Shown here: one piece after another, positions 11,094-61,152 of the stretch
How positions within the stretch are numbered: position 1 is the stretch's first letter
How the letters are laid out: each line of letters starts with the position of its first letter
Assembly (NCBI RefSeq): GCF_002105755.1
Contig: NZ_CP020821.1
Location: 5,022,001 to 5,086,000, forward strand
Direction: 5' to 3'
Length of the DNA stretch: 64,000 nucleotides
DNA from: Mycobacterium colombiense CECT 3035
Lineage (GTDB): Bacteria; Actinomycetota; Actinomycetes; Mycobacteriales; Mycobacteriaceae
Notes under the pieces: generated by a model
What the model was told of the DNA's origin: nothing
Database searches by the model: none
What the model saw: the letters and a program-made list of their open reading frames with translations, nothing else
Program-made: the position numbers and the translations under genes

Positions 11094-12465
11094 ATGGCCG
11101 ACCGACTGGATGTCGCCGCGCGCCTCGCCGAGGGCCGGGCGGCCGTCGAGCACACCCAGGCCTACGTGCAGGCCTGTCATGCGTTGGGCTACCAAAACCC
11201 CGATCTGACAACGTATCCCGCACAAGTTCGCGAACTGTATGCGGCGGAGAACGGCCTGGACCTGCGTGCGCTAGACCGCGACTGCGCGGAGCTGCGCGCG
11301 GCGGGTGTGGTGGCGGCCGAAGCGCTGCGGATGCAGCGGGCCCAGGTGGCCGAGCTGGCCGCGGTGTGGACGGGGCCGGGCGGGGACGCCGCGGTGCAGC
11401 TGTTGCAGCGGCACTGCGACACCGCGGACGCCGTCGCCACCGAACTGCGCGCGGCGGCCCAACGCTGCGAGTCCCTGCGCGACAACCTGTGGTATCTGGT
11501 CGATTCGGAGGTGGCGACCGCCATCGCCGTCGACGACCGTGTGCGCGCTCAGCGGGTGGCGTGGCTGCCCGCCGCCGCCGCGGTCACGGCGGGAGACCGC
11601 GACCGCGCCGCCGACGTGGTGCGCGAGCAGGTAATGCCCTACGTGGACAACGACATTCGCAATGACTGGCTGACGGCGATGCGTTCCACCTCCGACGGGG
11701 TGGAGACGTCCTACGCCATGGTCATCGACAAGATGACCGCCGTCCCGACGGCGTGTTTCGAGTTTCCCGGTGATCTCGGGGCCGGCGTCGTGCCGATGCA
11801 GCTCGCCCCGCCGGTGGCCGCCGCGCCAATCCCGGCGGCCGCACCCGCGCCCACGTCGACGGCCGCCGTGCCCGGTCCGGTTGCTGCCGCGCCGCCCGCG
11901 GACTGGGGATCGACGCTCGGCGACGCGCTGGGCATGCCCGCGGGGATTTGGGTGCTGGACTCGGCGGTCTCGGGGGAGGCGATCTGGGCGGCGGCCTCGG
12001 CGGCCTCGGCGGCGGCGGGCTCGGAGGCGGCCTCGGCGGCGGCGGGCTCGGCGGTGGCCTGCTCGGGCTGGCGGGCCGGATCGTCGATGCGGTGGGCGGG
12101 CTGATCGGCTCGGCGGGCGACGGGCTGGACGGCGCGGACACGCTGGACGGTGGCGGGGATGCCTTTGACGAAAAGCCGTTCCGCGCAGACCATTCCGAGG
12201 ACGAGGTCGCCGAGAAGACTGTCGATGACCCCGGCGATGCCGCCGAAGCCGATCAGGCCCGGCCGGTCGACGAACCCCAGCCGGGGCCCGACGGCGTCAT
12301 CCAACCGGTCGGGACGCCCGCGCCCGCCGACACTCCAGCACCGGACTCGCCGCCGGCACCGGAACCGCCGCCCGCGGCCCCGTCGCCCAACCGGCCCCCG
12401 CGGCCGACCCGGCGAAAACGCCGTGCGAGATCGCCGCCGACCAGCTTCCGCAGGCGGGACAGTGA
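11094..12465 (+). pseudogene. Rv3439c-like Ala/Gly/Pro-rich protein, interrupted by two frameshifts
   Basis: Conserved mycobacterial protein of unknown function, probably secreted with or alongside the preceding EspC-like product. Three frames must be joined to read it. From 11094 to about 11945 there is a helical N-terminal domain of ~280 residues. From there to about 12380 another frame gives a Gly-rich GLGGLGGG region and a hydrophobic segment (LIGSAG). To 12465 a third frame gives the ending KTPCEIAADQLPQAGQ. Both joins need one extra base, and each falls at a run of four identical bases (G at 11942-11945, C at 12378-12381) where five would restore the frame. Read uncorrected, the first frame stops at 12104. 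Real pseudogene or consensus error cannot be decided here. Confidence 0.75.
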
Positions 12466-12469
12466 GACC

Positions 12470-13510
12470 TCAGGCCTTGAGCTTCAGGGCTTCCTCGACG
12501 AAGCGGATGGATTCGGCGCGGTCGGTGGACAGCGGGTTCACCAACAGGGTGGTTACTCCGGACTCGGCGAAGGCGGCCATGCGTTCGGCGACGTATCCGG
12601 GCGGGCCGATCAGCGACATGCCGCGCACCAGCTCGTCGGGCACCGCGTCGATGGCCTCCTGCTTGCGGCCGGACAGGTACAGCTCCTGAATGCGGTCGGC
12701 GACCTCACCGAACCCGTAGCGCGTCGCCAGATTGTGGTAGAAATTGCGGCCTTTGGCGCCCATCCCGCCAATGTAGAGGCCCAGCTGCGGCTTGACCCAC
12801 GCCAGCCGCTCGTCGAGGTTCTCCCCGATGGCCAGCGACGCGTGCACCATCACGTCCAGCGGCCCCAGCGCGGGATCACGCTTGGCGGCACCGGCCGCCA
12901 GCGCCTCGCCCCAGATTGAATCAGCCTTGTCGGGCAGGTAGAACACGGGCTGCCAGCCCTCGGCGATCTCGGCGGTGAGTTCCACGTTCTTGGGGCCCAA
13001 CGCGGCGATGCTCACCGGAATACGTTCGCGCACAGGGTGATTGATGAGCTGCAGCGACTTGCCCAGGCCCGTTCCGCGGTCCGCGGGCAACGGCAGCTGG
13101 TAGTGCTTGCCGTCGTATTGCACGCGTTCGCGGCGCCACACCTTGCGGCAGATCTCGACGATCTCGCGGGTGCGGCCGATCGGGGCGTCGAATTGAACGC
13201 CGTGGAACCCCTCGATCACCTGCGGCCCGGAGGTGCCGATGCCCAAACGGAATCGCCCGTCGGACACGTAATCCAGCCCGGCGGCGGTCATCGCCAGCAG
13301 CGACGGGGTGCGGATGTAAATGGGCAGCACGCCGGACGCCAACTCGACGGTGTTGGTCTTGGCGGCCAGATAACCCAGCTGGCTGATGGCGTCGAAGGCA
13401 TACGCCTCGGCCACCACCGCGACCTCGATGCCGGACTTCTCGAGTTCGACCACGCGGTCCACGGCGTCGTGAAAGCCACCCGAATAATTCAGAGCGATCC
13501 CGATTCGCAT
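12470..13510 (-). CDS. LLM-class F420-dependent oxidoreductase
   Basis: Luciferase-like (TIM-barrel) oxidoreductase, 346 residues from the ATG at 13510 (MRIGIALNYSGG), the typical start of this family; a GTG 9 bases further upstream is also in frame. Signs of the family are LASGVLPIYIRTP, the phosphate-binding area DGRFRLGIGTSGPQV, and the C-terminal GPPGYVAERM. Members in mycobacteria use coenzyme F420; substrate unknown. It converges on the Rv3439c-like gene with a gap of only 4 bases and lies downstream of the hydrolase-like gene on the same strand. Confidence 0.85.
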   Translation of the reverse strand: MRIGIALNYSGGFHDAVDRVVELEKSGIEVAVVAEAYAFDAISQLGYLAAKTNTVELASGVLPIYIRTPSLLAMTAAGLDYVSDGRFRLGIGTSGPQVIEGFHGVQFDAPIGRTREIVEICRKVWRRERVQYDGKHYQLPLPADRGTGLGKSLQLINHPVRERIPVSIAALGPKNVELTAEIAEGWQPVFYLPDKADSIWGEALAAGAAKRDPALGPLDVMVHASLAIGENLDERLAWVKPQLGLYIGGMGAKGRNFYHNLATRYGFGEVADRIQELYLSGRKQEAIDAVPDELVRGMSLIGPPGYVAERMAAFAESGVTTLLVNPLSTDRAESIRFVEEALKLKA

Positions 13511-13568
13511 CCATGACACTTACCACGCCGCCGCGCGGGCCGGGACCCTCAGCCCACGCGAAGCATGC

Positions 13569-14408
13569 TCACTTCAGCAGGGCGACGATCTTGTCCTCCA
13601 AGGGAATCGCCTCGGCCTCGGGGTCGATCGCGTCCGTGCCCGGCAGATGCGCGTGCGGGTCGGCGAAGTCGCGGTACTTCTTGTCGCCGCCCAGGGTGTA
13701 GAGCAGGTAGCCGGTCAGCAGCGCCCGAACCGACCGCTGGGTGCGCCGGTGCGGACCGGGCAGCCCCAATACCTTGGTCAGCCGTCTGCCCTCGACCAGG
13801 CCACCGGGCTCGGCCTTGCTGACGATGCGCAGCGTCGCCGCATCCCACGCCTCGGCGAGCGCCGACGCGTGCGAGTTCAGCGTCGTCGGATCGCCCGGCG
13901 CGGCGAAGACCACCCCGGGAACCTGCAGCGACGCGGCCGGCTCCTGGGCCGGCGGGCTGGTGACGCTCGGGAAGATCGCGGCCACCGCCGCGGGCTTGGC
14001 CGGCATCCCGGCCGCGGCGAACACCGCGGCCGAGCCGCCGAAGCCGTGACCGGCCACGCCGAGCTTGGCCGGGTGCACGCTGATCTTGCCGGGGCCCAGG
14101 CGCACGCCCGACACGATGTCCAGGGCGGTGCCCAGGTCGAAGGCGAAGTTCAACACCGAGGGGGCCACGCCGCGCTGGGTGTCGGGAGCGCCGGCCACGA
14201 TGCCCCACGACGCCAGGTGCTCGAGCAGGTTCGCATACCGGGCCGCGCCGGCGAGCCAGTCGTGGCCGAACGCCACGCCCGGCAGGTTCAGCCCCTCCTC
14301 GGGGGTGTACACCACGCCCGGCAGGCCGGCGAAGGCCAGCTCACCACGCAAAACCCGATGCGGACCACGGCGGCTGAGAGCTGCGACGAGCTTGCGGATG
14401 CGGGCCAC
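13569..14408 (-). CDS. Alpha/beta-hydrolase-fold protein with Gly in the nucleophile position (Rv3438-like)
   Basis: 279 residues with the plan of a dienelactone-hydrolase-like protein: oxyanion-side VVYTPEEG, then VAFGHDWL, and a nucleophile elbow reading GHGFGGSA, where Gly122 stands where the catalytic serine normally is (GHSxGG). The later FADPHAHLPG could supply a histidine. Unless Ser126 or another residue replaces it, the protein may not be a hydrolase. GTG start. It is separated from the F420 oxidoreductase by about 60 bases and may be co-transcribed. It looks like the homologue of M. tuberculosis Rv3438 by size and neighbourhood. Confidence 0.8.
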   Translation of the reverse strand: MARIRKLVAALSRRGPHRVLRGELAFAGLPGVVYTPEEGLNLPGVAFGHDWLAGAARYANLLEHLASWGIVAGAPDTQRGVAPSVLNFAFDLGTALDIVSGVRLGPGKISVHPAKLGVAGHGFGGSAAVFAAAGMPAKPAAVAAIFPSVTSPPAQEPAASLQVPGVVFAAPGDPTTLNSHASALAEAWDAATLRIVSKAEPGGLVEGRRLTKVLGLPGPHRRTQRSVRALLTGYLLYTLGGDKKYRDFADPHAHLPGTDAIDPEAEAIPLEDKIVALLK

Positions 14409-14477
14409 GCGTTGACGTTAGCGCATCGCAATCGGGCGCCGGGGGACAAGGAACGCCGGCCGCGGCGCGGGCGCTAT

Positions 14478-14675
14478 CTAGCCCCTGACCTCGATGACAC
14501 CCATCCGCCACAGCGCCGCGTAGAGCTGGTGCAGCGGGATGGACAGCAGCTGGGCGGTCATGTCCATCAACGGGTTGCCGGAACCGGCCGGCGCCTGCGG
14601 CCGGGCCTGGGGCACCCGCCGGGGCGCCGGCGCCAGGGGGGCGGGCACCACATCGTCGTAGCGAACTGCGGTCAT
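14478..14675 (-). CDS. Small hypothetical protein, 65 aa
   Basis: Not recognised. An ATG preceded by GAGGAGG at good spacing gives a 65-residue protein: a Pro/Ala/Arg-rich first half, then an amphipathic helix-like end (TAQLLSIPLHQLYAALWRMGVIEVRG). No signal peptide or clear membrane span. The strong ribosome-binding site and the conserved-looking C-terminal half make it a credible gene. Its ATG overlaps the stop of the weaker upstream reading frame (ATGA). Confidence 0.6.
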   Translation of the reverse strand: MTAVRYDDVVPAPLAPAPRRVPQARPQAPAGSGNPLMDMTAQLLSIPLHQLYAALWRMGVIEVRG

Positions 14676-14977
14676 GATTGCCTCCTCATGGCGCCCGGCG
14701 GGCGGTCCAGAAAGTTACGCATCTCAATACGACCCGTTGCACAATTCCCGGTTAACAACCACTGACGATAAGAATTCTTGGTTCGGCTAAAAGCGTGGTC
14801 CCAGGTAGCCAGAATATCTGTCCTATGCCCAATAACCACCGGATTGCTCATCGTTGACCACGGCTTTGTAGCTGATACGCTGTGTGATCGTGATCGGGCG
14901 GGCTTCAAGCAGCCCGTCCCTGCGCTGAATCCGGCCTTTTCCCAGTCTCTGCTGATATTTCGAATGTAATGCGACAT
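14672..14977 (-). CDS. Doubtful 101-aa reading frame in a lower-GC stretch
   Basis: Possible reading frame from the ATG at 14977 (MSHYIRNISRDW...), with AAGGGA 8 bases upstream, ending in an ATGA overlap with the 65-residue gene. No recognised motif. Codon choice (TCA, AGA, GTA, TTA and ATT codons are frequent) is unlike the neighbouring genes, so it is either acquired DNA or not coding. The overlap with the following start is the only structural support. Confidence 0.25.
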   Translation of the reverse strand: MSHYIRNISRDWEKAGFSAGTGCLKPARSRSHSVSATKPWSTMSNPVVIGHRTDILATWDHAFSRTKNSYRQWLLTGNCATGRIEMRNFLDRPPGAMRRQS

Positions 14978-15212
14978 GTCCGTCGTCCCTTGTTGCGACA
15001 CGAAAACGTCGCAAATACATCAGATGAAAAACATTTCCGTCGTTTATGACGATTGAGTGAATGACGGAGGGTTCAGGACGCCGGGCCGGGACGCGTGGGA
15101 TGCGGAATTGGCGCGGTAGGGGAAGCTCACAGTGGGCCTTTGCGCAGGTGGGCGGCCTAACCCCGACCGCGGAGTGCCGGGGCGGTGGTCCACCTGCACT
15201 ACCCTGTTCAGA
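14978..15212. other. glmS upstream region, no gene seen
   Basis: Non-coding stretch between the minus-strand small reading frames and glmS. It begins lower in GC (AAAAACATTTCCG and similar) and becomes GC-rich towards glmS. It probably holds the divergent promoters. I see no ribozyme-like or riboswitch structure that I can support. Confidence 0.4.
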
Positions 15213-17087
15213 ATGTGCGGAATCGTCGGCTATGTCGGGCAGCAGCCTGCCTGTGAGGTCGTCATGGCCGCGCTGCGCCGGATGGAGTACCGGGGCTACG
15301 ACTCGTCGGGCGTCGCCCTGGTCAACGGGGACGGCACCCTGACGGTCAGCCGCCGCGCCGGCCGGCTGGCCAACCTGGAAGAGGCGGTCGCCGAGATGCC
15401 GGCGTCGTCGCTGACCGGAACCACCGGCCTGGGACACACCCGGTGGGCCACCCACGGACGTCCCACCGACCGCAACGCCCACCCGCACCGCGACGCCGCC
15501 GGCACGATCGCCGTGGTCCACAACGGCATCATCGAGAACTACGCAGGGCTGCGCCACGAGCTGGAGGCCGACGGCGTGGAATTCGCCAGCGACACCGACA
15601 CCGAGGTGGCGGTGCACCTGGTGTCGCAGGCATACCGGCACGGCCCCACCGCGGGCGATTTCGCCGCGTCGGTGCTCGCGGTGCTGCGCCGCCTGGACGG
15701 CCACTTCACGCTGGTGTTCGCCAACGCCGACGACCCCGGCACCATCGTCGCCGCCCGCCGCTCCACCCCGCTGGTGATCGGCATCGGCGACGGCGAGATG
15801 TTCGTCGGCTCCGATGTGGCGGCGTTCATCCCGCACACCCGCAATGCCATCGAGCTCGGCCAGGACCAGGCCGTGGTGATCACCGCCAACGGCTACCGGA
15901 TCACCGACTTCGACGGCAACGAGGACCTGGGGCCCGGGGCATACCGCGAGTTCCACATCGACTGGGACCTGGCCGCCGCCGAAAAGGGTGGCTACGAGTA
16001 CTTCATGCTCAAGGAGATCGCCGAGCAGCCGGCCGCCGTGGCCGACACCCTGCTGGGGCACTTCGTCGACGGCCGGATCGTCCTCGACGAACAGCGGTTG
16101 AGCGATCAGGAACTCCGCGAGATCGACAAGGTTTTCGTGGTGGCCTGCGGCACCGCGTATCACTCCGGCCTGCTGGCGAAGTACGCGATCGAGCACTGGA
16201 CGCGGCTGCCGGTCGAGGTCGAGCTGGCCAGCGAATTCCGGTACCGCGACCCGGTTCTGGACCGCAGCACCCTGGTGGTCGCCATCTCGCAGTCCGGCGA
16301 GACCGCGGACACCCTCGAAGCGGTCCGGCACGCCAAGGAGCAGAAGGCCAAGGTGCTGGCGATCTGCAACACCAACGGCTCGCAGATCCCGCGCGAGTGC
16401 GACGCGGTGCTGTACACCCGCGCCGGCCCGGAGATCGGGGTGGCCTCCACCAAGACGTTCCTGGCGCAGATCACCGCCAACTATCTGGTCGGGCTGGCGC
16501 TCGCGCAGGCCCGCGGCACCAAGTACCCCGACGAGGTGTGGCGCGAATACCACGAGCTGGAAGCGATGCCCGACCTTGTCGCGCGGGTCATCGCGACGAT
16601 CAAGCCGGTGGCCGCCCTGGCGTATCAATTCGCCCAGTCCCCGACGGTGCTGTTCCTGGGTCGCCACGTCGGATACCCGGTGGCGCTGGAAGGCGCGCTG
16701 AAGCTCAAGGAACTGGCGTACATGCACGCCGAGGGATTCGCCGCCGGCGAGCTCAAGCACGGCCCCATCGCGCTGATCGAAGACGATCTGCCGGTCATCG
16801 TCATCATGCCGTCGCCCAAGGGGTCGGCCGTGCTGCACGCCAAGTTGCTGTCCAACATCCGCGAGATCCAGGCCCGCGGCGCGATCACCATCGTCATCGC
16901 CGAGGAGGGCGACGACACCGTGCGGCCCTACGCCGACCACCTGATCGAAATTCCCTCTGTGTCAACACTTCTGCAGCCGCTACTGTCGACCATCCCGCTT
17001 CAGGTGTTCGCGGCGTCGGTGGCGCAGGCCCGCGGCTACGACGTCGACAAGCCGCGAAACCTGGCCAAGTCCGTCACCGTCGAATAG
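15213..17087 (+). CDS. glmS: Glutamine-fructose-6-phosphate aminotransferase (isomerising)
   Basis: First enzyme of hexosamine synthesis: makes glucosamine-6-phosphate from fructose-6-phosphate and glutamine, feeding GlmM encoded upstream. 624 residues from the ATG at 15213, the same length as the M. tuberculosis enzyme. Met is followed by the catalytic Cys2 (MCGIVGYVG), exposed after Met removal; this fixes the start although the frame is open further upstream. The glutaminase domain (to ~residue 240) has the GLGHTRWATHG motif. Two SIS domains follow, with VVACGTAYHS and SQSGETADT, then a C-terminal AEGFAAGELKHGP block and the ending LAKSVTVE. Confidence 0.97.
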   Translation: MCGIVGYVGQQPACEVVMAALRRMEYRGYDSSGVALVNGDGTLTVSRRAGRLANLEEAVAEMPASSLTGTTGLGHTRWATHGRPTDRNAHPHRDAAGTIAVVHNGIIENYAGLRHELEADGVEFASDTDTEVAVHLVSQAYRHGPTAGDFAASVLAVLRRLDGHFTLVFANADDPGTIVAARRSTPLVIGIGDGEMFVGSDVAAFIPHTRNAIELGQDQAVVITANGYRITDFDGNEDLGPGAYREFHIDWDLAAAEKGGYEYFMLKEIAEQPAAVADTLLGHFVDGRIVLDEQRLSDQELREIDKVFVVACGTAYHSGLLAKYAIEHWTRLPVEVELASEFRYRDPVLDRSTLVVAISQSGETADTLEAVRHAKEQKAKVLAICNTNGSQIPRECDAVLYTRAGPEIGVASTKTFLAQITANYLVGLALAQARGTKYPDEVWREYHELEAMPDLVARVIATIKPVAALAYQFAQSPTVLFLGRHVGYPVALEGALKLKELAYMHAEGFAAGELKHGPIALIEDDLPVIVIMPSPKGSAVLHAKLLSNIREIQARGAITIVIAEEGDDTVRPYADHLIEIPSVSTLLQPLLSTIPLQVFAASVAQARGYDVDKPRNLAKSVTVE

Positions 17088-17207
17088 CCGGCGAACAGCC
17101 TGCGCCGCTTCGCCCGGATACCCGGCGGACGCGCGGCTGATCCATTACATTGCCCTGGGACAGCATTTGCGGCAGGTGGGTTGGGCTCAGTCGGTACGGG
17201 AGGAAGT

Positions 17208-18125
17208 ATGCGATCGGCCGGCACGAAATTCGGTGTCGTGGGACTCGTTGTCCTCGTCCTCGCGGCGTACGTGGTAGCGGTCGGCTTGTACGCGCAAAGC
17301 GGTACCGGCCGGCGTCTGGACGCGAGCGCCCAGACCGCCGACGGCGACAAGCCGTCGGCGACGATCAACGTCGAAGACATCCAGTCCAACAACAGCGTGC
17401 TGGCGGTCAATCTGGCGTTCAATCCCGGATCGGCGTTGCTGGACCCGAAAACCCACCACCTCAAGGACGATCTCAGCCTGCGCGTCAGGTCCTCCGCGAT
17501 GCCGTCCCGGCACACCTGGACCAAGGGCATGCTTCCCGGCCTGATGGCCGTCCCGCTGACCATCGCCGGCCAGATCGAGCGGTGGCCCTTCGACCAATAC
17601 CGCTCGGGGCCGATCGAAGTCGAGATCTTCTACGGACCCGACACCGACCGGGCGCCCGACCACGTGCCGGTCACCTTCGTCGATCACCTTTCGGGGTGGC
17701 GGCTCTCCGCCACCAGAACCCAGGCGGACGGTCCCTACCGGCTGAACGTGCACCGCTCGCTGAGCACCGCGGCGTTCGCGATCGTCATCCTCGGTGTGCT
17801 CATCACGATCGCCAGTCTGGCTCTGGTGGTTGCGATCCAGACGGCGCGCGACCGGCGGCCGTTTCAGCCCCCGATGACCACGTGGTACGCGGCCATGCTG
17901 TTCGCGGTGGTGCCGCTGCGCAACGCGCTGCCCGGCTCGCCGCCGTTCGGCAGCTGGGTCGACATCACCGTCGTCATCTGGGTGCTGGTCGCGCTGGCGG
18001 TCTCGATGATTCTCTACATCGGATGCTGGTGGCGGCATTTGAATCCGGTGCCCGCCCCCGCACCGGCGCAACCCGTGCCGGCGCCGGAACCCGCCCCCGC
18101 ATCGGAACCCGCGCCGTCGAAGTAG
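17208..18125 (+). CDS. DUF4436-type membrane protein (Rv3435c-like)
   Basis: 305-residue membrane protein of unknown function. It has one N-terminal hydrophobic segment (residues ~8-30), an extracytoplasmic-looking domain of about 150 residues with regular beta-type sequence, then three hydrophobic helices (about 190-215, 230-245, 255-275) and a Pro/Ala-rich tail of ~35 residues (repeats of PAPAPAQPVPAPEPAPASEP type). I chose the ATG at 17208, which has GGGAGGAAG immediately upstream; the frame extends 9 codons further. It resembles the DUF4436 family and M. tuberculosis Rv3435c. Confidence 0.8.
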   Translation: MRSAGTKFGVVGLVVLVLAAYVVAVGLYAQSGTGRRLDASAQTADGDKPSATINVEDIQSNNSVLAVNLAFNPGSALLDPKTHHLKDDLSLRVRSSAMPSRHTWTKGMLPGLMAVPLTIAGQIERWPFDQYRSGPIEVEIFYGPDTDRAPDHVPVTFVDHLSGWRLSATRTQADGPYRLNVHRSLSTAAFAIVILGVLITIASLALVVAIQTARDRRPFQPPMTTWYAAMLFAVVPLRNALPGSPPFGSWVDITVVIWVLVALAVSMILYIGCWWRHLNPVPAPAPAQPVPAPEPAPASEPAPSK

Positions 18126-18194
18126 CCGATCGCCGGCGGCGTGTTTGCCACCGAAGTTGTCCGGCGCCCCGTCGCGCGTGCGAAGGTTGATGTC

Positions 18195-18911: not shown

Positions 18912-19037
18912 TGCCGGCGCCGGCCGGCACCGAAAGACTCTGGGCGCCAAGGCGCTTTCTTGCGGTGCGCGCCGTGCGGCATGTCGTTGCGGCGAGCGCG
19001 GCTGTACACGGCGACGCTGACACGTAATCTGACTCTG

Positions 19038-20489: not shown

Positions 20490-21880
20490 GTGCCGCAACA
20501 CCCTTCCATGCCCGCGCACTCCATCGCACCCGCCTACACCGGCCGCCTGTTCACCGCGCCGGTGCCCGCCCTGCGGATGCCCGACGAGTCGATGGATCCC
20601 GACGCCGCCTACCGCTTCATCCACGACGAGCTGATGCTCGACGGGAGTTCGCGACTGAACCTGGCCACCTTCGTCACCACCTGGATGGACCCCCAGGCCG
20701 GGCGGCTGATGGCCGAGACATTCGACAAGAACATGATCGACAAGGACGAATACCCGGCGACGGCCGCCATCGAGCAGCGCTGCGTGTGCATGGTGGCCGA
20801 CCTGTTCCATGCCGACGGCCTGCGCGACGACGACCCGTCCAGCGCGTGCGGGGTGTCCACCATCGGGTCCAGCGAGGCGGTGATGCTGGGCGGCCTGGCG
20901 ATGAAATGGCGCTGGCGCGAGAAGGTCGGCTCCGGAAAGGACGGCTGGAAGGCGCGCACCCCGAACCTGGTGATGGGCTCCAACGTCCAGGTGGTCTGGG
21001 AGAAGTTCTGCCGCTACTTCGACGTCGAACCGCGCTATTTGCCCATGGAGGAGGGGCGCTACGTCATCACCCCCGAGCAGGTCCTCGACGCCGTCGACGA
21101 GGACACCATCGGTGTGGTGGCGATCCTGGGCACCACCTACACCGGTGAGCTCGAGCCGATCGAACAGATCTGTGCGGCGCTGGACAAGCTGGCCGCCGGG
21201 GCGGGGTGGACGTCCCGGTGCACGTCGACGCCGCCAGCGGGGGCTTCGTGGTGCCGTTCCTGCACCCCGAGCTGAAGTGGGACTTCCGGCTGCCCCGGGT
21301 GGTCTCGATCAACGTCAGCGGCCACAAGTACGGGCTGACCTATCCCGGCGTCGGATTCGTGGTGTGGCGCAGCAAGGAGTACCTGCCCGAGGACCTGGTA
21401 TTCCACGTGAACTACCTCGGCGGCGACATGCCGACCTTCACGCTGAACTTCTCCAGGCCCGGCAACCAGGTGGTCGGCCAGTACTACAACTTCCTGCGGC
21501 TCGGCCGCGAGGGCTATACGCAGGTGATGCAGACGCTGTCGTCGACCGCGCGGTGGCTGGGTGAACAGTTGCGGACCGGCGAGCATGCCGAGTTGATCTC
21601 TGACGGTTCGGGCATCCCGGTGGTCAGCTTCCGGCTCGCCAAGGACCGCGGCTACACCGAGTTCGACGTCTCCCATGAGCTGCGCGGCTACGGCTGGCAG
21701 GTGCCGGCGTACACCATGCCCGACAACGCCACCCACATCTCGGTGCTGCGCATCGTGGTGCGCGAGGGCCTGTCCGCGGACCTGGCCCGGGCCCTGCACG
21801 ACGACGCCCGCAGCGCGCTGGCGTCGCTGGACAAGCTCAAGCCGGGCGGGCACTACCGGGCCGAACACTTCGCGCACTAG
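20490..21880 (+). pseudogene. gadB: Glutamate decarboxylase, interrupted by one frameshift
   Basis: PLP enzyme converting glutamate to GABA, relevant to acid tolerance. The gene starts at a GTG with AAAGGATCT upstream. The first frame encodes residues 1 to ~238, ending in LAAGAG, then runs into a stop at 21275. A frame one base earlier carries on exactly with VDVPVHVDAASGGF and the PLP-lysine block SGHKYG, to the family C-terminus at 21880. One extra G in the run at 21203-21206 would give a normal 463-residue protein. No other lesion is seen over the whole length, which favours a consensus error or very recent mutation over an old pseudogene. Confidence 0.88.
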
Positions 21881-51796: not shown

Positions 51797-51812
51797 TCGA
51801 ACATACATTCGA
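51797..51812 (+). promoter_or_regulatory. LexA SOS box upstream of imuA'
   Basis: TCGAACATACATTCGA differs from the mycobacterial LexA consensus TCGAAC-N4-GTTCGA at one base. It lies 46 bases upstream of the imuA' ATG, where a DNA-damage-inducible operator is expected. Confidence 0.88.
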
Positions 51813-51858
51813 ATACACCACCCGGTAGGCCCCGGAAAGCTGGTGATAGGAGGCTGTC

Positions 51859-52599
51859 ATGACCGCGGCTTTTGCCTCCAGTCCCCACCAGGAAACCCGT
51901 GCTGAGCAGCTGGAATCGCTTCGTCGCCAGATGGCGAGCATCTCCGGGAGGAAAGTCGGGCCGTCCGCCGCCGCGCCCGCCGGGGACCTGCTGCCGGACT
52001 CGGAGGCCCAGCTGGCCCTCCCGCCGTGGCTGGCCGACCTGCTGCCCGCCCCGGTGCCGCGGGGAACGGTCGCGGTGCTCTCGGGTGCCCGGTCGCTGCT
52101 GCTGAGCATGGTGGCCGCCGTCACGGCGGCCGGTGGCAACGCGGCCATCGTCGGCCAGCCGGACATCGGGCTGCTGGCCGCCGCCGAGATGGGGGCGGAC
52201 CTGAGCCGGCTCGCGGTGATACCGGATCCCGGCACCGATCCGGTGGAGGTGGCCGCCGTGCTCGTCGACGGCATGGACCTGGTGGTCCTGGGGCTGGGCG
52301 GGCGCCGGGTGCCGCCCAGCCGGGCGCGGGCGGTGGTGGCCCGCGCCCGGCTGGGCGGGCGCCGGGTGCCGCCCAGCCGGGCGCGGGCGGTGGTGGCCCG
52401 CGCCCGGAACAAGGGCTGCACCCTGCTGGTCACCGGCGGCGATTGGCAGGGGGCGCCGACGCGCCTCGCCGCCCGGGTCTGTGGCTATGACATCACCGCG
52501 GACAGCCGCCCCGGATTCGGCCGGATCGGCGGGGTGCGGCTGCAGGTCAGCGGGACGTGCGCGGGACGACGGGTGCTGCCCCAGGCGCGGGCCGGGTGA
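51859..52599 (+). CDS. imuA': ImuA', mutasome accessory protein, with internal 19-aa tandem duplication
   Basis: RecA-like accessory protein that works with ImuB and the DnaE2 polymerase in damage-induced mutagenesis. 246 residues; start ATG with AGGAGG 8 bases upstream. The RecA-like core includes [19 protein letters not shown], where a P-loop is degenerate (no GKT/S), VVLGL for a Walker B strand, and LLVTGGDW. Residues 146-164 ([19 protein letters not shown]) are repeated exactly, so the protein is 19 residues longer than expected. Controlled by the SOS box upstream. imuB starts 7 bases after its stop. Confidence 0.88.
52294..52407 (+). repeat. Perfect 57-bp tandem duplication inside imuA'
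   Basis: Copy 1 (52294-52350) and copy 2 (52351-52407) are identical over 57 bases, directly adjacent and in frame, so 19 residues are duplicated without breaking the gene. Confidence 0.95.
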
Positions 52600-52606
52600 A
52601 ATTTCG

Positions 52607-54180
52607 GTGGTAACACCTTCTCGCTCACGGGTTTTGGCGATCTGGTGCATGGATTGGCCCGCGGTCGCTGCGGCGACGGCCGCGGGCCTGTCCGCGACCG
52701 CCCCGATCGCGGTCACGCTGGCCAACCGGGTGATCGCCTGCTCGTCGGCGGCCCGGGCGGCGGGCGTGCGGCGGGGCTGCGGCGCCGGGAGGCGGCGGCC
52801 CGGTGCCCGCAACTGCACGTCACCACCGCCGACGCGGACCGCGACGCCCGCTTCTTCGAGGCGGTGATCGCGGCGGTGGACGACCTGGTGCCCCGCGCCG
52901 AGGTGCTGCGGCCCGGTCTCCTGGTGCTGCCGGTGCGCGGGGCGGCCCGTTACTTCGGGTCCGAGGCCACCGCCGCAGAACGGCTGATCGATGCGGTCGC
53001 CGTGGCCGGCGCCGAGTGTCAGGCCGGGGTCGCCGACCAGCTGTCCACCGCGGTCTTCGCGGCGCGGGCGGGCCGCATCATCGAGCCGGGGGGTGACGCG
53101 AAGTTCTTGTCGGTGCTGTCCATCCGGCAACTTGCCACCGAGCCGAGCCTGTCCGGCACCGGCCGCGAAGAGCTGACGGACCTGTTGTGGCGGATGGGGA
53201 TTCGCACCATCGGGCAGTTCGCCGCGCTGTCGCGCAGCGACGTGGCTTCCCGGTTCGGCGCCGACGGGGTGACCGCGCACCGGTTGGCCCGCGGCGAACC
53301 CGAGCGGCCGCCGTCCGGCCGGGAGCCGCCGGCCGAACTCGAGGCCGTGCTGGATTGCGATCCGCCGATCGACCGGGTCGATGCCGCGGCGTTCGCCGGG
53401 CGCTCACTGGCCGGCAGGCTGCATCAGACGCTGATGGCCGCCGGCGTGGGATGCACCCGGCTGGCCATCCACGCCGTCACCGGCAACGGCGAAGAACTGC
53501 ACCGGGTGTGGCGGTGCGCCGAGCCGCTGACCGAGGACGCCACCGCCGACCGGGTGCGCTGGCAGCTGGACGGATGGCTGAGCAGCCGCACCGTGCACAA
53601 TCCGCGTCCCACCGCCGCGGTGACGCTGTTGCGGCTGGGCGCGGTGGAGGTGGTCTCCGCCGAGGCGCTGCAGCTGCCGCTCTGGGGCGGACTGGGCGAG
53701 GAGGACAGGCTGCGGGCCCGCCGGGCGCTGGTGCGGGTGCAGGGCCTGCTCGGCCCGGAGGCGGTTCGCGTGCCGGTGCTGTCCGGTGGGCGCGGGCCGG
53801 CCGAGCGCATCACGCTGATCCCGCTCGGCGACGAGCCGGTGCCGCGGGCCGATCCCGATCCGCCGTGGCCCGGCCGGCTGCCCGAACCGTCACCGGCGGT
53901 GCTGCTGGACGACCCGGTGGAACTGCTTGACGCCCAAGGAAACCCGATACGGGTGACCATCAGGGGGCTGTTCTCCGCCGACCCCGCACGCATGATCGGC
54001 GGGGGTTGCGACGAGCGGCTGTGCTGGTGGTCCGGGCCCTGGCCGGTCGACGAGCGATGGTGGGATCCGGAATTGAGTAAGGGCCGCACCGCCCGCGCCC
54101 AGGTGTTGCTGGAGAGCGAGCGCGCGCTGCTGCTGTGCTATCGCCAGCGGCGCTGGTATGTGGAGGGGAGTTACGAATAG
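52607..54180 (+). pseudogene. imuB: ImuB, Y-family-like mutasome hub, interrupted by one frameshift
   Basis: Non-catalytic Y-family polymerase relative that bridges ImuA', DnaE2 and the beta clamp. The N-terminal frame from a GTG at 52607 gives RVLAIWCMDWPAVAAAT... to GVRRG; the remainder, from LRRREAAARCPQL to the stop at 54180, is in a frame one base earlier. One extra G in the run at 52773-52776 restores a 524-residue protein. The clamp-binding motif QLPLWG is present (from 53671). Usual Y-polymerase catalytic acids are not seen beyond the MDWP aspartate. In this assembly the gene is broken; a shortened product could start at 52645 but would lack the conserved N-terminus. Converges on the lactate monooxygenase gene with a 10-base overlap. 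Confidence 0.88.
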
Positions 54181-55349
54181 TCCCGCGGTACAGCGTATTC
54201 GACGCGCCGCAACGCGTCGGGCGTCAGGTCCTTGAGCGACGGATAGCCGTCGACGGCCATGATCAGGTCCGCTTCGGCCAGCAGCGAGCGCAGCACGTGC
54301 ACGATGCCGTCGACGCCACCGAGGGCCAGCCCGTAGGCGTAGGGGCGGCCGATCCCCACGGCGGTCGCGCCCAGCGCCAGCGCCTTGATGATGTCGGCAC
54401 CACCGCGCACGCCCGAGTCGAACAGCACCGGCAGCCCGTCGGCGGCCTCGATGACCGCGGGCAGACAATCCAGGCAGGGCAGCCCGCCGTTGGCCTGCCG
54501 GCCACCGTGGTTGGAGCAGTAAATGCCGTCCACGCCAATCTCTTTGGCGCGGCGAACGTCGTCGGGGTGGCAGACGCCCTTCACCATCAGCGGCAGGTCG
54601 GTCTCCGCCCGCAGCCATTCCAGGTCCTCCCACCGGAACGGCCCACCGAAGATCGGCAGCTTGCGCACCGCCGCCTCGGTGGCGTCTTCGCCCCGGCTCA
54701 GGTTGGCGCGAAAAACCGGATCGCTGGTGTAGTTGGCCAGGCAGCCGCTGGGCACCTGCGGATAGTTCCCGCCCAACAGGTCGCGGGGCCGCCAGCCGGT
54801 GACCCACGTGTCCAGGGTGACGGCGATGCCCTTGAAGCCGGCCGCCTCGGCGCGGTGCACCAGGCTGGCGGCCATCTTGCGGTTCGGCGGCGTGTAGAGC
54901 TGGAAGAACGCCGGGTTATCGCCGAGCTCGGCGGCGATATCTTCCATCGGGTCCGAGGTGAGCGTGCCCACGAAGAACGGGACGCCGGTGCGGACGGAGG
55001 CGCGGGCGCAGAGCATGTCCCCGTGGCCGTCCGGGTCACACACCCCGATGACGCCGATGGGTGCCATGAAGATCGGCGACGGGAACCTGATGCCGAACAG
55101 CTCGACCGACATGTCGCGCTCCTCGGGGGCGACGCCCATCCGCGGGTACAGGCCCCAGCGCTTGAACGCCTCGCAGTTGGCGCGCTGGGTGTGTTCGTCG
55201 CCGGCGCCGCCCGCGACGTACTGGAGCACCTTCGGTGTCATCGCCGCCGACGCCTTGGCCTCCAGCTCCTCGAACCTGATCGGGTATTGCGGCTGATTGC
55301 CGTGCAGCGACTGGTCGTACAGCTCGTTTTGATAATCGGCGAAAGCCAT
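54171..55349 (-). CDS. Lactate 2-monooxygenase, FMN-dependent
   Basis: 392-residue FMN alpha-hydroxy-acid oxidase family enzyme, closest by recall to mycobacterial lactate 2-monooxygenase (lactate plus O2 to acetate, CO2 and water). FMN-barrel landmarks: VLQYVAGGAGDEHTQRAN, FMAPIGVIG, FQLYTP, LMVKGV and SNHGGRQANGG with the catalytic His281, then VLFDSGVRGGADIIKALALGA. The family arginine is in the GGRQ loop. ATG start. Overlaps the end of imuB by 10 bases, convergent. A KasB-like gene lies upstream on the same strand, 71 bases away. Confidence 0.9.
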   Translation of the reverse strand: MAFADYQNELYDQSLHGNQPQYPIRFEELEAKASAAMTPKVLQYVAGGAGDEHTQRANCEAFKRWGLYPRMGVAPEERDMSVELFGIRFPSPIFMAPIGVIGVCDPDGHGDMLCARASVRTGVPFFVGTLTSDPMEDIAAELGDNPAFFQLYTPPNRKMAASLVHRAEAAGFKGIAVTLDTWVTGWRPRDLLGGNYPQVPSGCLANYTSDPVFRANLSRGEDATEAAVRKLPIFGGPFRWEDLEWLRAETDLPLMVKGVCHPDDVRRAKEIGVDGIYCSNHGGRQANGGLPCLDCLPAVIEAADGLPVLFDSGVRGGADIIKALALGATAVGIGRPYAYGLALGGVDGIVHVLRSLLAEADLIMAVDGYPSLKDLTPDALRRVEYAVPRDYS

Positions 55350-55420
55350 AGTCGCTGACTTCCCCGTGCCTGGAACACCAAACGAGCGCCGGGGAATGCG
55401 GCACCCGGTCGACGCCGCCG

Positions 55421-56680
55421 TCAGTAGCGCCCGAAGGCGATGGCCACGTTGTGTCCGCCGAAGCCGAATGAGTTGTTGATGGCGTATTCGTAGTTGCCCG
55501 GGCGTGGCTTGCCGGCCACCACGTCGAGGTCGATGTCGGGGTCGAGGTTTTCCAGGTTGAGGGTGGGCGGTATGACCTGGTCGCGCAGGGCGAGCACGGT
55601 CAGGATGGATTCCACGGCGCCCACGGCGCCCACCGAGTGGCCGAGTGCGGCTTTGGGGGCGTAGACGGCGGCGTTTCCGCCGTGCGGGCCCAGGGCGTTG
55701 TTGATGGCCTTGGCCTCGGCGACGTCGCCGACCGAGGTGCCGGTGGCGTGGGCGTTGACGTGGTGGATGTCGGACGGGCTGAGCCCGGCGAGCTGGATGG
55801 CCCGGCTCATGGCGTGTCCGGCGCGTAGGCCGTTGGGGTCGGGGGCGACCATGTGGTAGCCGTCGGAGGTGATGCTGGCGCCCATGATGCGGGCCAGGAT
55901 GTTGGCGCCGCGGGCTTTGGCGTGTTCCTCGGTTTCGATGACCAGCAGGGCGCCGGCCTCGCCGAACACGAAGCCGGTGCGGTCGCGGTCGAACGGGCGG
56001 CAGGCGCCGGCCGGGTCGTCGTTCTTGGTCGACATCACGATGCGCATCTGGGCGAACGCCGCGATCGCGACCGCCTCGATTCTGACCTCGACGCCACCGC
56101 AGATCGCCACGTCGGCCTCACCGAAGACGATGTTGCGCCAGGCCTGGGCCACCCCCTCGGAACCCGACGCGCACGCCGACACCGGGGTGATGACCCCGGC
56201 CTTGGCGCGCCGCTCCAGGGCCACCGCGACGGCAGCGCCGTCGGGCATGTACTTCGACACGGCCAGCGGCGAGACGCCGGCGATGCCCCGGGCGCGCAGA
56301 TCGTCATAGCTGAACACGATCTGCTCGGCGGACCCCAGCCCGGTGCCGATGGACACCATCAGGCGGTTGGGGTCGACCTCGGGGGAGCCGGCGTTCTCCC
56401 AGACCCGCCGGCTCAACACGGCCGACATCCGCTGCAGGTAGCCCATCCGGTGGCGTTCGGCGCGGGTCAGCCCGCCGTCGAAGTCCTCCAGCAGGTGCCC
56501 GCCGATGCGCACCGGCAGGTCAAACTCCTCGACGAACGAATCTTCCAGCTTGCGGATACCACTTTGCTTGTCCAACAACAGCTTCCAGGTGGTTTCGGCA
56601 TCAGTTGCCACCGCGGTCGTCATGGCGACGCCAGTGACGACCACGTTCGGCAACGTTTTCCCGGTAACCAACTCCGTCAT
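55421..56680 (-). CDS. KasB-like beta-ketoacyl-ACP synthase, stand-alone paralogue
   Basis: 419-residue condensing enzyme that would add two-carbon units to long acyl-ACPs in the FAS-II/mycolic-acid system. The triad is Cys170 ([10 protein letters not shown]), His311 (HVNAHATGT) and His348 (KAALGHSVG), with Lys343. The N-terminus [36 protein letters not shown] resembles KasB rather than KasA. In M. tuberculosis kasA and kasB lie together in the fas-II operon; here the gene is isolated between a lactate monooxygenase and iunH, so it is most likely an extra paralogue. ATG at 56680. Confidence 0.87.
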
Positions 56681-56735
56681 GACTCGCGAAACCTTTCATC
56701 TGACCCTTTTGCGGATACCGTACGCTCGCCGGGCG

Positions 56736-57188
56736 TTATCCGGCACGCACCTCCGCCGCCCGCGCCATCAGCCCGCGGCCACCGGGCAGGGCGCCCACCA
56801 CGGTGCGGGCCAGCCGGTCGCGGCCGCGCAGACCGTCCGTCCTGGCCTTTCCGGCGCGCAGGTGGCGCCAGCCCAACCCGGCCCAGGACGCCGCGACGAC
56901 GGCGTCGGTCAGCCCACCGCGAGCGCGCCGCCGGTCGACCACGGCCAGACCGAGCGCGGTCGCCGAGTGCACGGTGTCGACCCAGACCCCGGCCGCGAGC
57001 ACCTCCGGGCCCGGGTTGACCCCCGACAGCAGCGCCTGGGTCAGGTGGCGCGCGCCCAGAATCCGGGTGACCACCAGCGCCTTCCGATCGACCTGCACCC
57101 CGTGGATGTGGTCGAGCACCTCGTTGGGGGCGATCAGCAGCACCGCACCCCAACCCGCCCGGATCAGCTCGATCGCACGAATCTTCAT
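56736..57188 (-). CDS. Hypothetical protein with hydrophobic segments, coupled to iunH
   Basis: 150 residues, not recognised. Hydrophobic segments at about residues 8-22, 50-65 and 68-85 alternate with Arg-rich stretches, suggesting a small membrane-associated protein. The ATG at 57188 (GGGGGTGA upstream) overlaps the iunH stop by 4 bases (ATGA), so it is translated from the iunH message. It is followed by the KasB-like gene 55 bases later. Confidence 0.7.
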   Translation of the reverse strand: MKIRAIELIRAGWGAVLLIAPNEVLDHIHGVQVDRKALVVTRILGARHLTQALLSGVNPGPEVLAAGVWVDTVHSATALGLAVVDRRRARGGLTDAVVAASWAGLGWRHLRAGKARTDGLRGRDRLARTVVGALPGGRGLMARAAEVRAG

Positions 57189-58219
57189 CCGTCACCCCCT
57201 ATTTGGCGAGCAAAAGGCCCCACTCGTTCGATGAACCGGTCGAAGAAGGCCGCCGCATCGACGTCAATCCCGATGAGCGCGTTGGGTTCCCGACGGTCCG
57301 ACCAGTCGGTCACCGTCATGGCGCGGGTCAGGGTTCCGGTCAGCTCGATGCCCACCGTCGCCGGACGCGTCGTGACCAGTTCGGGATCCAGGGCGACGGC
57401 GGCGGCCAGCGGATCGTGCAGGTGCGCCTGGTACCCATGGCCGAGTTCGTGGTAGGCCTCCAGGTAGAACCGCATCGCGTCCTCGATCACCCGGATCAGC
57501 GGGTTGGACGCCGTCGACCGGGTTCCGGCGGGGTCGTGTTCGCTCAGCCGTGTGGTCGTCGACTGCGCCGCCGCGGCCAGCCGCGCCAGATGATCGGGGG
57601 TCATTGCCACCTTGCGGGTCAGATCCAGGCCGCACAGAATCGGGAGACGTTGGCGCCCAACGTTTTCCGGGCACCACGCGGCCAGCACCTCGGCCGCAGC
57701 CTCCGGATCCACGCTGATGTTCCACTCCGCCACCGCGGTGGTGTTGCCCCGGTGGTCGTAGGAGCCGCCCATGATGACCAGCCGTTTGAGCAGCGCCGGC
57801 AGTTCTGGCTCGGCGCGCAGCGCCAGCGCCAGGTTGGTGAGCGGGCCGGTCGCCACGCCGATCAGCTCGCCGGGGCGGGCGCGCGCGGCGCGCACCCACG
57901 CGTCGGCCGAGTCGTAATCGGTGAGCCGGCCCGAGCCCGGCGGCAGGTCGGCGTAGCCCAATCCCCTGGGGCCGTGGACTTTTGACGGCAGCCGCATCGG
58001 CCCGGTCAGGGTTTCCCCGGAACCCTTGGAGACCGGTACGTCGGTGCGCTCACACAGCGCCAGCAAACCCAGGTTGTTCTCGCAAACCTGGTCCACCCCA
58101 ACGTTTCCCCCGGTCGATGCGATGCCGATCACTTCGGCGTCCGGGCTGGCGAACAGGTACATCAGCGCCAGCGCGTCATCCACGCCGGTATCGACGTCGA
58201 CGAAGACGGGGGAGTTCAT
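57185..58219 (-). CDS. iunH: Inosine-uridine-preferring nucleoside hydrolase
   Basis: 344-residue ribonucleoside hydrolase that releases base and ribose for salvage. The calcium-binding aspartate cluster is DVDTGVDDAL at the N-terminus; further family blocks are GVATGPLTNLALALR, LVIMGGSYDHRGNTT and AEWNISVDPEAA. The substrate-side HDPLAAAVALDP holds the last metal ligand Asp. I used the ATG at 58219 (MNSPVFVDVDTG); an in-frame TTG at 58237 is an alternative. A 4-base overlap couples it to the hypothetical gene downstream. Divergent from cmaA1 with only 36 bases between starts. Confidence 0.9.
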   Translation of the reverse strand: MNSPVFVDVDTGVDDALALMYLFASPDAEVIGIASTGGNVGVDQVCENNLGLLALCERTDVPVSKGSGETLTGPMRLPSKVHGPRGLGYADLPPGSGRLTDYDSADAWVRAARARPGELIGVATGPLTNLALALRAEPELPALLKRLVIMGGSYDHRGNTTAVAEWNISVDPEAAAEVLAAWCPENVGRQRLPILCGLDLTRKVAMTPDHLARLAAAAQSTTTRLSEHDPAGTRSTASNPLIRVIEDAMRFYLEAYHELGHGYQAHLHDPLAAAVALDPELVTTRPATVGIELTGTLTRAMTVTDWSDRREPNALIGIDVDAAAFFDRFIERVGPFARQIGGDG

Positions 58220-58255
58220 CGGTTCCAAGATACTCAATTCGGCGACTAGGCTGAC

Positions 58256-59146
58256 ATGATGCCAACCACGTCGGAGCCCCCCGAGGGGACTGATTTAACG
58301 CCGCACTTCGACGATGTGCAGGCCCACTACGACCTGTCGGACGAATTCTTCCGGCTATTCCTCGACCCGACCCAGACCTACAGCTGCGCCTACTTCGAGC
58401 GCGAGGATATGACGCTGGAAGAGGCGCAGATCGCCAAGATCGACCTCGCCCTCGGCAAACTCGGGCTGCAGCCGGGCATGACGTTGCTCGACGTCGGCTG
58501 CGGCTGGGGCGCCACCATGATGCGGGCGGTGCAAAAGTACGACGTCAACGTCGTCGGCCTGACCCTGAGCCGCAACCAGGCCGAGCACGTCGAGCAGCTG
58601 ATCGCGAACTCCGGGAGCCCCCGCTCGGCGCGGGTCCTGCTGGAGGGCTGGGAGAAGTTCGACGAGCCGGTCGACCGCATCGTCAGCATCGGGGCCTTCG
58701 AGCATTTTGGCCACGAGCGCTACGACGCGTTCTTCACCATGGCCCACGACCTGCTGCCCGACGACGGGGTCATGCTGCTGCATACCATCACCGGGCTGCA
58801 TCCCAACGAGATGGTCGAGCGCGGGATGCCGATCTCGTTCACGTTCGCCCGATTCATCAAATTCATTGTCACCGAGATCTTTCCGGGTGGGCGGCTGCCG
58901 TCGATACCGATGGTGGAAGAGCGTGCCACCGCGAACGGTTTCACGGTGAGCCGGGTGCAGTCGCTGCAGCCGCACTACGCGAAGACCCTCGACATCTGGG
59001 CCGCGTCGCTGCAGGCCCATAAGGACGAGGCCATCGCGGTGCAGTCCGAGGAAGTCTACGAGCGGTACATGAAATACCTGACCGGTTGCGCCGACGCGTT
59101 CCGGGTCGGATACATCGACGTCAACCAGTTCACGCTGCAGAAATGA
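58256..59146 (+). CDS. cmaA1: Cyclopropane mycolic acid synthase CmaA1
   Basis: SAM-dependent enzyme that cyclopropanates the distal double bond of mycolic acids. 296 residues. It has the mycolate methyltransferase N-terminus (VQAHYDLSDEFFRLFLDPTQ, YSCAYFERED), SAM motif LLDVGCGWGATMM, VGLTLSRNQAEHV and the active-site area GAFEHFGHERYDAFF, with LHTITGLHP. The C-terminal AFRVGYIDVNQFTLQK matches CmaA1 better than MmaA4. Two ATGs (58256, 58259) are adjacent; either is possible. Divergent from iunH, convergent with acrA1 with no gap between stops. Confidence 0.9.
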   Translation: MMPTTSEPPEGTDLTPHFDDVQAHYDLSDEFFRLFLDPTQTYSCAYFEREDMTLEEAQIAKIDLALGKLGLQPGMTLLDVGCGWGATMMRAVQKYDVNVVGLTLSRNQAEHVEQLIANSGSPRSARVLLEGWEKFDEPVDRIVSIGAFEHFGHERYDAFFTMAHDLLPDDGVMLLHTITGLHPNEMVERGMPISFTFARFIKFIVTEIFPGGRLPSIPMVEERATANGFTVSRVQSLQPHYAKTLDIWAASLQAHKDEAIAVQSEEVYERYMKYLTGCADAFRVGYIDVNQFTLQK

Positions 59147-61152
59147 CTACCAGTGCACCCCGGGCACCAGGCGGACCAGCCGCTTGACCGGACGCGGTGT
59201 CCGGAGGCCCCGGGTGACGGCGCGCACCGGCCGGCTGGGCTTGCGGCGGGCGGTCCGCGGGCCGCGGCGGGCTCGGTGGTTTGCCCGCGCGCCGCGGCCG
59301 AATCCGGATAGCCGAGGTAGAGCTGGTGCAGCACGCGCCGCGAGGTCCGCGGGGCGAAGTAATTGCCGGCCTCGGCGAGCGTGCCCAGCGGCGTGTCGAT
59401 GCGGGCCGGCTTGTCCACCAGCCCGCGCACCACCATCGCCGCCGCGCGCTCGGGGCTGATCGCCGGCACCGGGTTGAGCCGGTGCGACGGCACGATCATC
59501 GGGGTGCGCACCAGCGGCATGTGGATGTTGGTGAACGTGATGTGGTCGGACAGCACCTCCGAGCCCACCACGTCGGAGAACGCGTCCAGCGCGGCCTTGC
59601 TCGGCAGGTAGGAGCTGTACTTGGGATTGCGGGCCTGCACGCCTGCGCTCGACACGTTGACGACGTGACCGAACCGGCGCTCGCGCCAGTGCGGTAGCAG
59701 CGCCAGCACCATCCGCACCGCGCCGAAGTAGTTGACCGCCATAACCCGTTCGTAATCGTGCAGCCGGTCGGTGGAGTTGACCACCGAGCGGCGGATCGAG
59801 CGGCCGGCGTTGTTCACCAGGTAGTCGACGTGGTCGAAGCGGCCCAGGATGTCCTTGACCGTATGTTCCACCGACGCGGAATCGGTGACATCGCAGGTAA
59901 AGGCATGGGCCACACCGCCATTGGCGCGGATCTCGTCGACCAGCGCATCGAGCGCCGCGCCGTTGCGGGCCAGCGCGAACACGGTGGCGCCCCGCTCGGC
60001 GATCGCGATGGCCGCGGCCCGGCCGATGCCGCTGGACGCGCCGGTGATGATGACGTGGCGGCCCTGCAACGGTCCCTGCGGATCGTCGCGGCGCGCGCGA
60101 TCGGGATCGAGGTGCTCCGCCCAGTACCGCCACAGCTTGGGCGCGTAGTCGGCGAACTCCGGAACGCTGATCCCGGTGCCCTGCAAGGCGTTTCGTGTCT
60201 TCTCGCTGACAAAGGTGGGCGCCAGGTCGACGACGTCGAGCACCTCGGCGGGGATGCCGAGCTGGGTGGCCGCCATGTTGCGCACCACCCTGGCGCGACC
60301 GCGCACCTTGAGCACCGGGGCGGCCACCGCGCGGGGCAGCGACCCGCGCAGCGGCGGCAGCCCGGCCGCCTTGGCCACGCCGCGGTAGATGCCGCGCAGG
60401 CCGATCGTCTTCTCCGCGGTCAGGTGGAACGTCTGCCCGTCCCGACCCTCGGCATGCATCAGCGCGACCAGGGCGTCCACCACGTAGTCGACCGGCACGA
60501 TGTTGGTGCGGCCGGTGTCGGGCAGCAGCATCGGGGTCAGCCGGGGTAGCACCGCCAGCTTGGCCAGCACGCCGAAGAAGTAATACGGGCCGTCCACCTT
60601 GTCCATCTCGCCGGTGCGTGAATCGCCCACCACCACGGCCGGGCGGTAGATGCGGTGCCGCAGCCCGGGCGCCGAGCGCACCAGCAGCTCGGCCTCGAAC
60701 TTGGTCTGGTGATAGGGCGTCGGCAGCTGCTGGCCGACGTCGAAGTCGTCCTCGGTGTATTCGCCGGCGAAATCGCCGGCCACGGCGATCGACGAGACGT
60801 GGTGCAACGTCGCGTCCAGCCGCTGCGCCAGGCCGATCACCGCGCGGGTGCCCTCGACGTTGCTGGCCCGCTGCTCGGGCTCACCGGCGGTGATGTCGTA
60901 GATCGCCGCGCAGTGCACCACGTGATCGATGTCGCCCAGCTCGGCGAGGACCTCGTCGCTCAGGTCCAGCTCCGGAAGGCCGCCGACCAGGGGTTTCACC
61001 CGGTCGCCCCAGCGTTCCGCGAGCCGCTCGAAGCGGCCCAACGACTGCCGTCGCACCAGCACCCACACCTGCGCGTCGGGGCGGGATTCCACGAGACGTG
61101 ACACGACTCGGCGGCCAATAAACCCGGTACCGCCGGTAACGACATACCGCAT
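59147..61152 (-). CDS. acrA1: AcrA1-like two-domain acyl-CoA reductase/SDR protein, probable frameshift near C-terminus
   Basis: Large multidomain oxidoreductase of mycobacterial lipid metabolism. It starts MRYVVTGGTGFIGR (ATG at 61152) with an extended SDR domain (GGTGFIG, then YHQTKFEAE) of ~370 residues, followed by a classical SDR domain with GASSGIGRA, NNAGRS and YLPSK. The reading frame then passes PDSAAARGQTTEP and would continue to 59056, running 91 bases into cmaA1. A frame one base off carries RTPRPVKRLVRLVPGVHW and stops at 59147, the C-terminus I recall for M. tuberculosis Rv3391. So one base appears lost between about 59225 and 59290. Coordinates given assume the restored end. 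Confidence 0.83.

What the first reader, a model, noticed from the sequence alone, without database searches (positions are those of the whole stretch)
11094..61152. Five single-base losses in conserved genes, four at shortened G/C runs: likely consensus error
Conserved proteins continue in a frame one base earlier at 11942-11945, 12378-12381, 21203-21206, 52773-52776 and about 59225-59290. At four of these a G or C run of four bases needs to be five to restore the known protein. All shifts go the same way (one base too few). Independent mutation of the two rplM-type neighbours is not seen. The uniform direction and run context favour a sequencing or polishing artefact, and several apparently broken genes would then be intact.
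Basis: partly seen in the sequence, partly recalled or inferred. Interest (0 to 1): 0.7.

Follow-up and report, generated by a model that had tools for sequence, protein, structure and literature searches.

The report
Probable sequencing errors splitting mycobacterial genes
Several genes in this stretch of a Mycobacterium colombiense reference genome read as split by what looks like one missing base each, most likely because the published sequence is slightly wrong rather than because the bacterium lost the genes.

Summary
Observation largely confirmed. The window lies in a single-contig genome of 5,581,643 bases, the length quoted for M. colombiense CECT 3035, NZ_CP020821.1. Four genes carry five frame changes, all in the same direction (equivalent to one base too few): an unknown Ala/Pro-rich gene (twice), glutamate decarboxylase, an ImuB-type gene, and the tail of a reductase gene. 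Two are clean one-base differences from every relative that aligned across (8 of 8; 5 of 5). Two lie in length-variable DNA and rest mainly on protein frames. The fifth is not a simple one-base loss. The pattern is not local: in 337 kb of tested coding sequence of this genome I find 7 clean one-base losses and 1 gain, against 1 loss, 3 gains and 1 two-base loss in 1,115 kb of eight relatives. Five of the 7 losses touch a G/C run of at least four, where 5.4% of positions do. ruvB and dnaE2 are among the genes hit. Consensus error is favoured (0.62); real slippage, well documented in mycobacteria, is the main rival (0.28), and only reads can decide.

The parts
11094..12104 (+). gene A (unknown, Ala/Pro-rich; by position recalls Rv3439c, recalled), open frame holding the first piece
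   Evidence: 7 of 7 relatives' proteins match this frame up to about 11,942-12,086; no Pfam or NCBIfam family
11930..12406 (+). gene A, second piece in another frame; first frame change within 11,930-11,954
   Evidence: tblastn frames, 7 of 7 relatives
12370..12465 (+). gene A, third piece in a third frame; second frame change within 12,370-12,406
   Evidence: tblastn frames, 7 of 7 relatives; sequence read
20490..21275 (+). glutamate decarboxylase, upstream piece
   Evidence: Pyridoxal_deC positions 9-226; Glu-decarb-GAD positions 1-222 of 431
21206..21880 (+). glutamate decarboxylase, downstream piece; frame change within 21,167-21,206
   Evidence: Pyridoxal_deC positions 228-374; 8 of 8 relatives
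51859..52599 (+). ImuA'-type gene upstream of the ImuB-type gene
   Evidence: NCBIfam NF058630, 183.9 bits over cut-off 65
52580..52873 (+). ImuB-type gene, upstream piece; frame change within 52,762-52,873
   Evidence: relatives' proteins G137 and G054
52645..54180 (+). ImuB-type gene, open frame holding the downstream piece
   Evidence: IMS match 19.8 bits, under its cut-off of 23.2, while an intact relative scores 50.6; DNA differs by one base from 5 of 5 relatives aligned across
59236..61182 (-). SDR-family reductase, main piece
   Evidence: PRK07201 positions 1-633 of 657
59150..59260 (-). C-terminal tail of the reductase in another frame; frame change within 59,236-59,260
   Evidence: relatives' proteins

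Best explanation
Most of these frame changes are errors in the consensus of this published chromosome: single bases dropped, mostly in or beside short G/C runs, scattered over the genome, with the genes intact in the living strain. Shown: the frame changes, their direction, open frames in relatives, occurrence beyond the window, and an excess over relatives. Inferred: that the DNA molecule differs from the record. Site 5 may be ordinary variation of a protein tail, and sites 1-2 are less certain at base level.
For: Seven clean one-base losses and 1 gain in 336,993 tested coding bases here, against 1 loss, 3 gains and 1 two-base loss in 1,115,049 in eight relatives scanned alike; 7 of 8 pooled losses falling in this genome has binomial P 2.3e-4 and 8 of 13 pooled clean breaks P 3.4e-3. 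5 of 7 losses touch a G/C run of four or more against 5.4% of coding positions, P 8.9e-6. Only 2 of the 7 are in the window, so it is genome-wide. Pieces on both sides keep third-position-rich substitution. ruvB and dnaE2, conserved genes, are among those hit. Deletion errors in a long-read assembly were most frequent after runs of four to five (PMC12007338, passages), and a mycobacterial reference made partly with 454 carried many likely errors (PMC12817950, passages).
Against: No reads, no second assembly of the strain, and no statement of how the record was sequenced was found (listings, most papers not opened). The loss:gain ratio alone, 7:1, gives P 0.07. With breaks agreeing only modulo three added, the excess shrinks to 10 per 337 kb against 9 per 1,115 kb. 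Seven of 17 own and 18 of 27 relative candidates stayed unresolved. In the long-read study A/T runs were the commoner site, whereas none of the 7 here is at an A/T run, though the genome is GC-rich. Genes recalled as essential in the window (rplM, glmM, glmS, guaA) are open, which real mutation would also explain.
Confidence: 0.62

Rival explanations
1. The breaks are real, recent one-base losses by polymerase slippage in this strain, left uncorrected because the mycobacterial NucS system does not act on indels, in genes not needed in culture; some could be reversible.
For: In M. smegmatis -1 changes arise in runs of three or four bases, with DinB1 and DnaE2 as mediators; in M. tuberculosis isolates -1 is stated to be the commonest indel, twice as common as +1 (PMC9346131, passages). 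An isolate has on average one indel per 74,497 genic bases (PMC8339072, section 6 read), the same order as one clean break per 42 kb here. Gad, imuB and dnaE2 are recalled as dispensable in culture.
Against: Eight relatives of the same genus show far fewer clean losses, 1 in 1,115 kb; nothing singles this strain out biologically. Part of the natural indels counted in print lie in PE/PPE genes or are in-frame.
Confidence: 0.28
2. The strain has really lost induced mutagenesis: the ImuB-type gene and dnaE2, partners of one mutasome (recalled), are both broken.
For: ImuB-type break (5 of 5 relatives aligned) and dnaE2 break (5 of 5 relatives aligned) in one genome, about 14 kb apart.
Against: The ImuA'-type gene still scores over its cut-off; unrelated genes are hit in the same way; the pairing was noticed after the fact.
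Confidence: 0.05
3. Programmed frameshifting or genuinely separate genes.
For: None found beyond the frame changes themselves.
Against: Relatives carry one open frame across gene A (7 of 7), glutamate decarboxylase (8 of 8) and the reductase tail (5).
Confidence: 0.02

Closest known systems
Deletion errors at short homopolymers in bacterial assemblies (PMC12007338; Erdman reference, PMC12817950; passages seen)
   Same: Single-base frame-breaking differences, deletions frequent at runs of four to five; many genes of a mycobacterial reference affected.
   Different: The sequencing method of this record is unknown to me; A/T runs dominated in the long-read study, G/C runs here.
Natural -1 slippage frameshifts of mycobacteria (PMC9346131 passages; PMC8339072 section 6)
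   Same: Direction, short-run context and order of magnitude of density.
   Different: Relatives scanned the same way show far fewer clean losses, and 7:1 losses to gains is above the quoted 2:1, though not significantly so at this number (my estimate).

Membership tests
Assembly consensus error | One direction of change | tested here: met
   7 clean losses and 1 clean gain in this genome; sign test P 0.07 only
Assembly consensus error | Homopolymer context | tested here: met
   5 of 7 clean losses touch a G/C run of four or more, background 5.4%
Assembly consensus error | Scattered over the assembly, in excess of comparable genomes | tested here: met
   sample of 424 kb of 5.58 Mb against eight relatives
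Assembly consensus error | Blind to gene importance | tested here: inconclusive
   ruvB and dnaE2 hit, genes recalled as essential in the window open; too few events
Assembly consensus error | Contradicted by accurate reads or a second assembly | not testable with these tools
   no reads held; protein database switched off
Natural mycobacterial slippage | -1 changes in short runs | tested here: met
Natural mycobacterial slippage | Similar rate in relatives | tested here: not met
   1 clean loss in 1,115 kb of eight relatives against 7 in 337 kb
Natural mycobacterial slippage | Carried by the DNA of the strain | not testable with these tools
   no reads held

The most novel reading that the evidence does not exclude
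The type strain is a real one-base-loss mutator, or has really lost its ImuB-DnaE2 mutasome within a burst of run-length losses, so that on the order of a hundred genes are recently frame-broken and possibly reversible.
Probability: 0.07. Interest if true: 0.65.

Novelty: not a real feature. Interest (0 to 1): 0.2.

Why it matters
The record serves as a species reference (PMC12875251, passages). If it drops single bases in G/C runs, comparisons will report false pseudogenes, for instance loss of glutamate decarboxylase, ruvB or the induced-mutagenesis genes. If the breaks are real, the strain would be an unusual case of widespread slippage.

Tried and rejected
A DNA-only scan does not place the first break of gene A and gives mixed lengths at the second; protein pieces showed both. 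First protein scans with stop-to-stop frames gave many breaks at gene starts from upstream extensions: with at least two relatives in support, 5 places in the window (2 of them at gene starts) and 1, 1, 1, 2, 4, 1, 2 and 1 in G069, G137, G054, G088, G108, G044, G203 and G037. I added a codon-position test. The local realignment was badly anchored; its indel contexts are not used, only its coding totals; one search replaces it. A count of in-frame stops (own 21, G069 29, G137 31, G054 19, G088 8, G108 6, G044 3, G037 2, G203 0) shows no excess here but looks dominated by antisense frames (my judgement, untested). Some unresolved relative candidates are echoes of this genome's own split decarboxylase frame used as query. 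G037 has a split guaA, but between its two domains, so it may work and proves nothing. One-base differences also occur in non-coding DNA here in both directions, which does not discriminate. Rejected: programmed frameshift; site 5 as a simple loss at a run. Dropped before counting: region L153 (no usable homologues) and pieces under 22 aa. Counts as clean need at least two relatives with the same difference. The broken gene near 1,364,602 was not identified, and its downstream piece is short.

Full report
WHAT IT IS. The window is G000:C1:5,022,001-5,086,000 of a single-contig genome of 5,581,643 bases. A 2026 paper gives 5,581,643 bp for its alignment to the M. colombiense reference CECT 3035, NZ_CP020821.1 (PMC12875251, passages only; the same paper's table lists 5,578,571 for another assembly of that strain). 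The exact match makes this very probably that record (inference). GlmS is 97% identical to that of strain GF28, which another paper puts at 89.7% ANI from M. colombiense (PMC11476446, passages). The genus is that of a control-list germ, so I describe and mend nothing.

THE BREAKS. Gene A lies between glmM (9,380-10,717) and a minus-strand luciferase-like gene (12,470-13,519). Of 12 relatives, 7 gave its region whole, each with one open frame of 450-507 aa. Their proteins match the window in three successive frames, 7 of 7. It has no Pfam or NCBIfam family and no solved relative. Glutamate decarboxylase is split into pieces covering positions 9-226 and 228-374 of the family, the only two matches in this genome; 8 of 8 relatives' proteins are split here. 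The ImuB-type gene follows an ImuA'-type gene; its downstream piece scores under the IMS cut-off while an intact relative scores over it, and the name ImuB rests on that neighbourhood and on recall. Three other Y-family genes exist elsewhere in the genome. The reductase keeps its domains and has a changed tail.

BASE LEVEL. Sites 3 and 4 are clean one-base differences in every relative that aligned across: 8 of 8, and 5 of 5 with 3 of 8 not aligning. At site 1, 2 of 3 alignments agree modulo three; at site 2, 4 of 6; at site 5, 5 of 5 but with five different lengths. So a one-base loss is well shown for two sites, rests on protein frames for two, and is undecided for one.

CHANCE. 5.4% of coding positions touch a G/C run of four or more by the measure used. 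The window holds 385 G/C runs of exactly four and 91 longer ones, so nearness to a run is weak evidence for a loosely placed break.

BEYOND THE WINDOW. I took 19 further 20-kb stretches of this genome and matching stretches of relatives, dropped one without homologues, and scanned each genome with the others' proteins, asking for third-position-rich substitution on both sides. This genome: 424 kb with the window, 336,993 tested coding bases, 17 candidates: 7 clean losses, 1 clean gain, 2 agreeing modulo three, 7 unresolved, gene A among the last. Eight relatives: 1,115,049 tested coding bases, 27 candidates: 1 clean loss (G037), 3 clean gains (all G137), 1 two-base loss (G108), 4 agreeing modulo three, 18 unresolved. 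Clean and modulo-three together give 10 against 9, a weaker excess. Two of the 7 clean losses are in the window. Genes hit elsewhere: dnaE2, ruvB, a tesB-type thioesterase and an SDR, and one not identified. Scaled up, some hundred such breaks would be expected in the genome (inference).

READING. An outlier genome with scattered, mostly one-directional, run-associated breaks in genes that relatives keep open and that still look selected is what a consensus error gives. Deletion errors most frequent after runs of four to five are described for a long-read assembly, there mostly at A/T runs (PMC12007338, passages), and a mycobacterial reference with many likely errors is described (PMC12817950, passages). 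Yet mycobacteria make the same change for real: -1 changes arise in runs of three or four, NucS is stated not to correct indels, and -1 is stated to be twice as common as +1 in M. tuberculosis isolates (PMC9346131, passages); an isolate has on average one indel per 74,497 genic bases (PMC8339072, section 6). Therefore I hold the artefact at 0.62, not higher.

THE PAIR imuB AND dnaE2. Both being split would, if real, disable induced mutagenesis (recalled role). The ImuA'-type gene scores over its cut-off, unrelated genes are hit alike, and the pair was seen after the fact, so I give it little weight. A search for dnaE2, imuB, pseudogene and Mycobacterium together found 0 papers. Listings for the record or the strain named no paper on how it was sequenced or on its pseudogenes; most of those papers I did not open.

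VERDICT. Interest is low, except as a warning about a reference record.

Noticed in passing
L158:1663-4984 (own genome near 5,088,452, right of the window): dnaE2-type error-prone polymerase gene is split into a PHP-domain piece and the rest; one base shorter than 5 of 5 relatives aligned across.
   Followed up: partly
L198:11050-12098 (own genome near 451,322): ruvB is split into two frames; 2 of 2 relatives aligned across agree.
   Followed up: partly
own genome near 444,122 and 4,016,364: A tesB-type thioesterase gene and an SDR gene are split in the same way.
   Followed up: partly
own genome near 4,971,161: The one clean one-base gain in the sample, near a gene's end; 2 of 2 relatives aligned across agree.
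   Followed up: no
window 15136-15141: A one-base length difference from 9 of 10 covering relatives just inside the long glmS frame, but upstream of where the glmS family match begins (residue 28), so probably in the leader.
   Followed up: no
L137:16879-18455 (G037): guaA of a single-contig relative is split between its two domains; 7 of 7 relatives aligned agree on a one-base difference.
   Followed up: partly
L153 (own genome 2,200,001-2,220,000): The middle 4 kb has almost no DNA match in four relatives: one 231-base and one 50-base match in 2 of 4; possibly a lineage-specific island.
   Followed up: no
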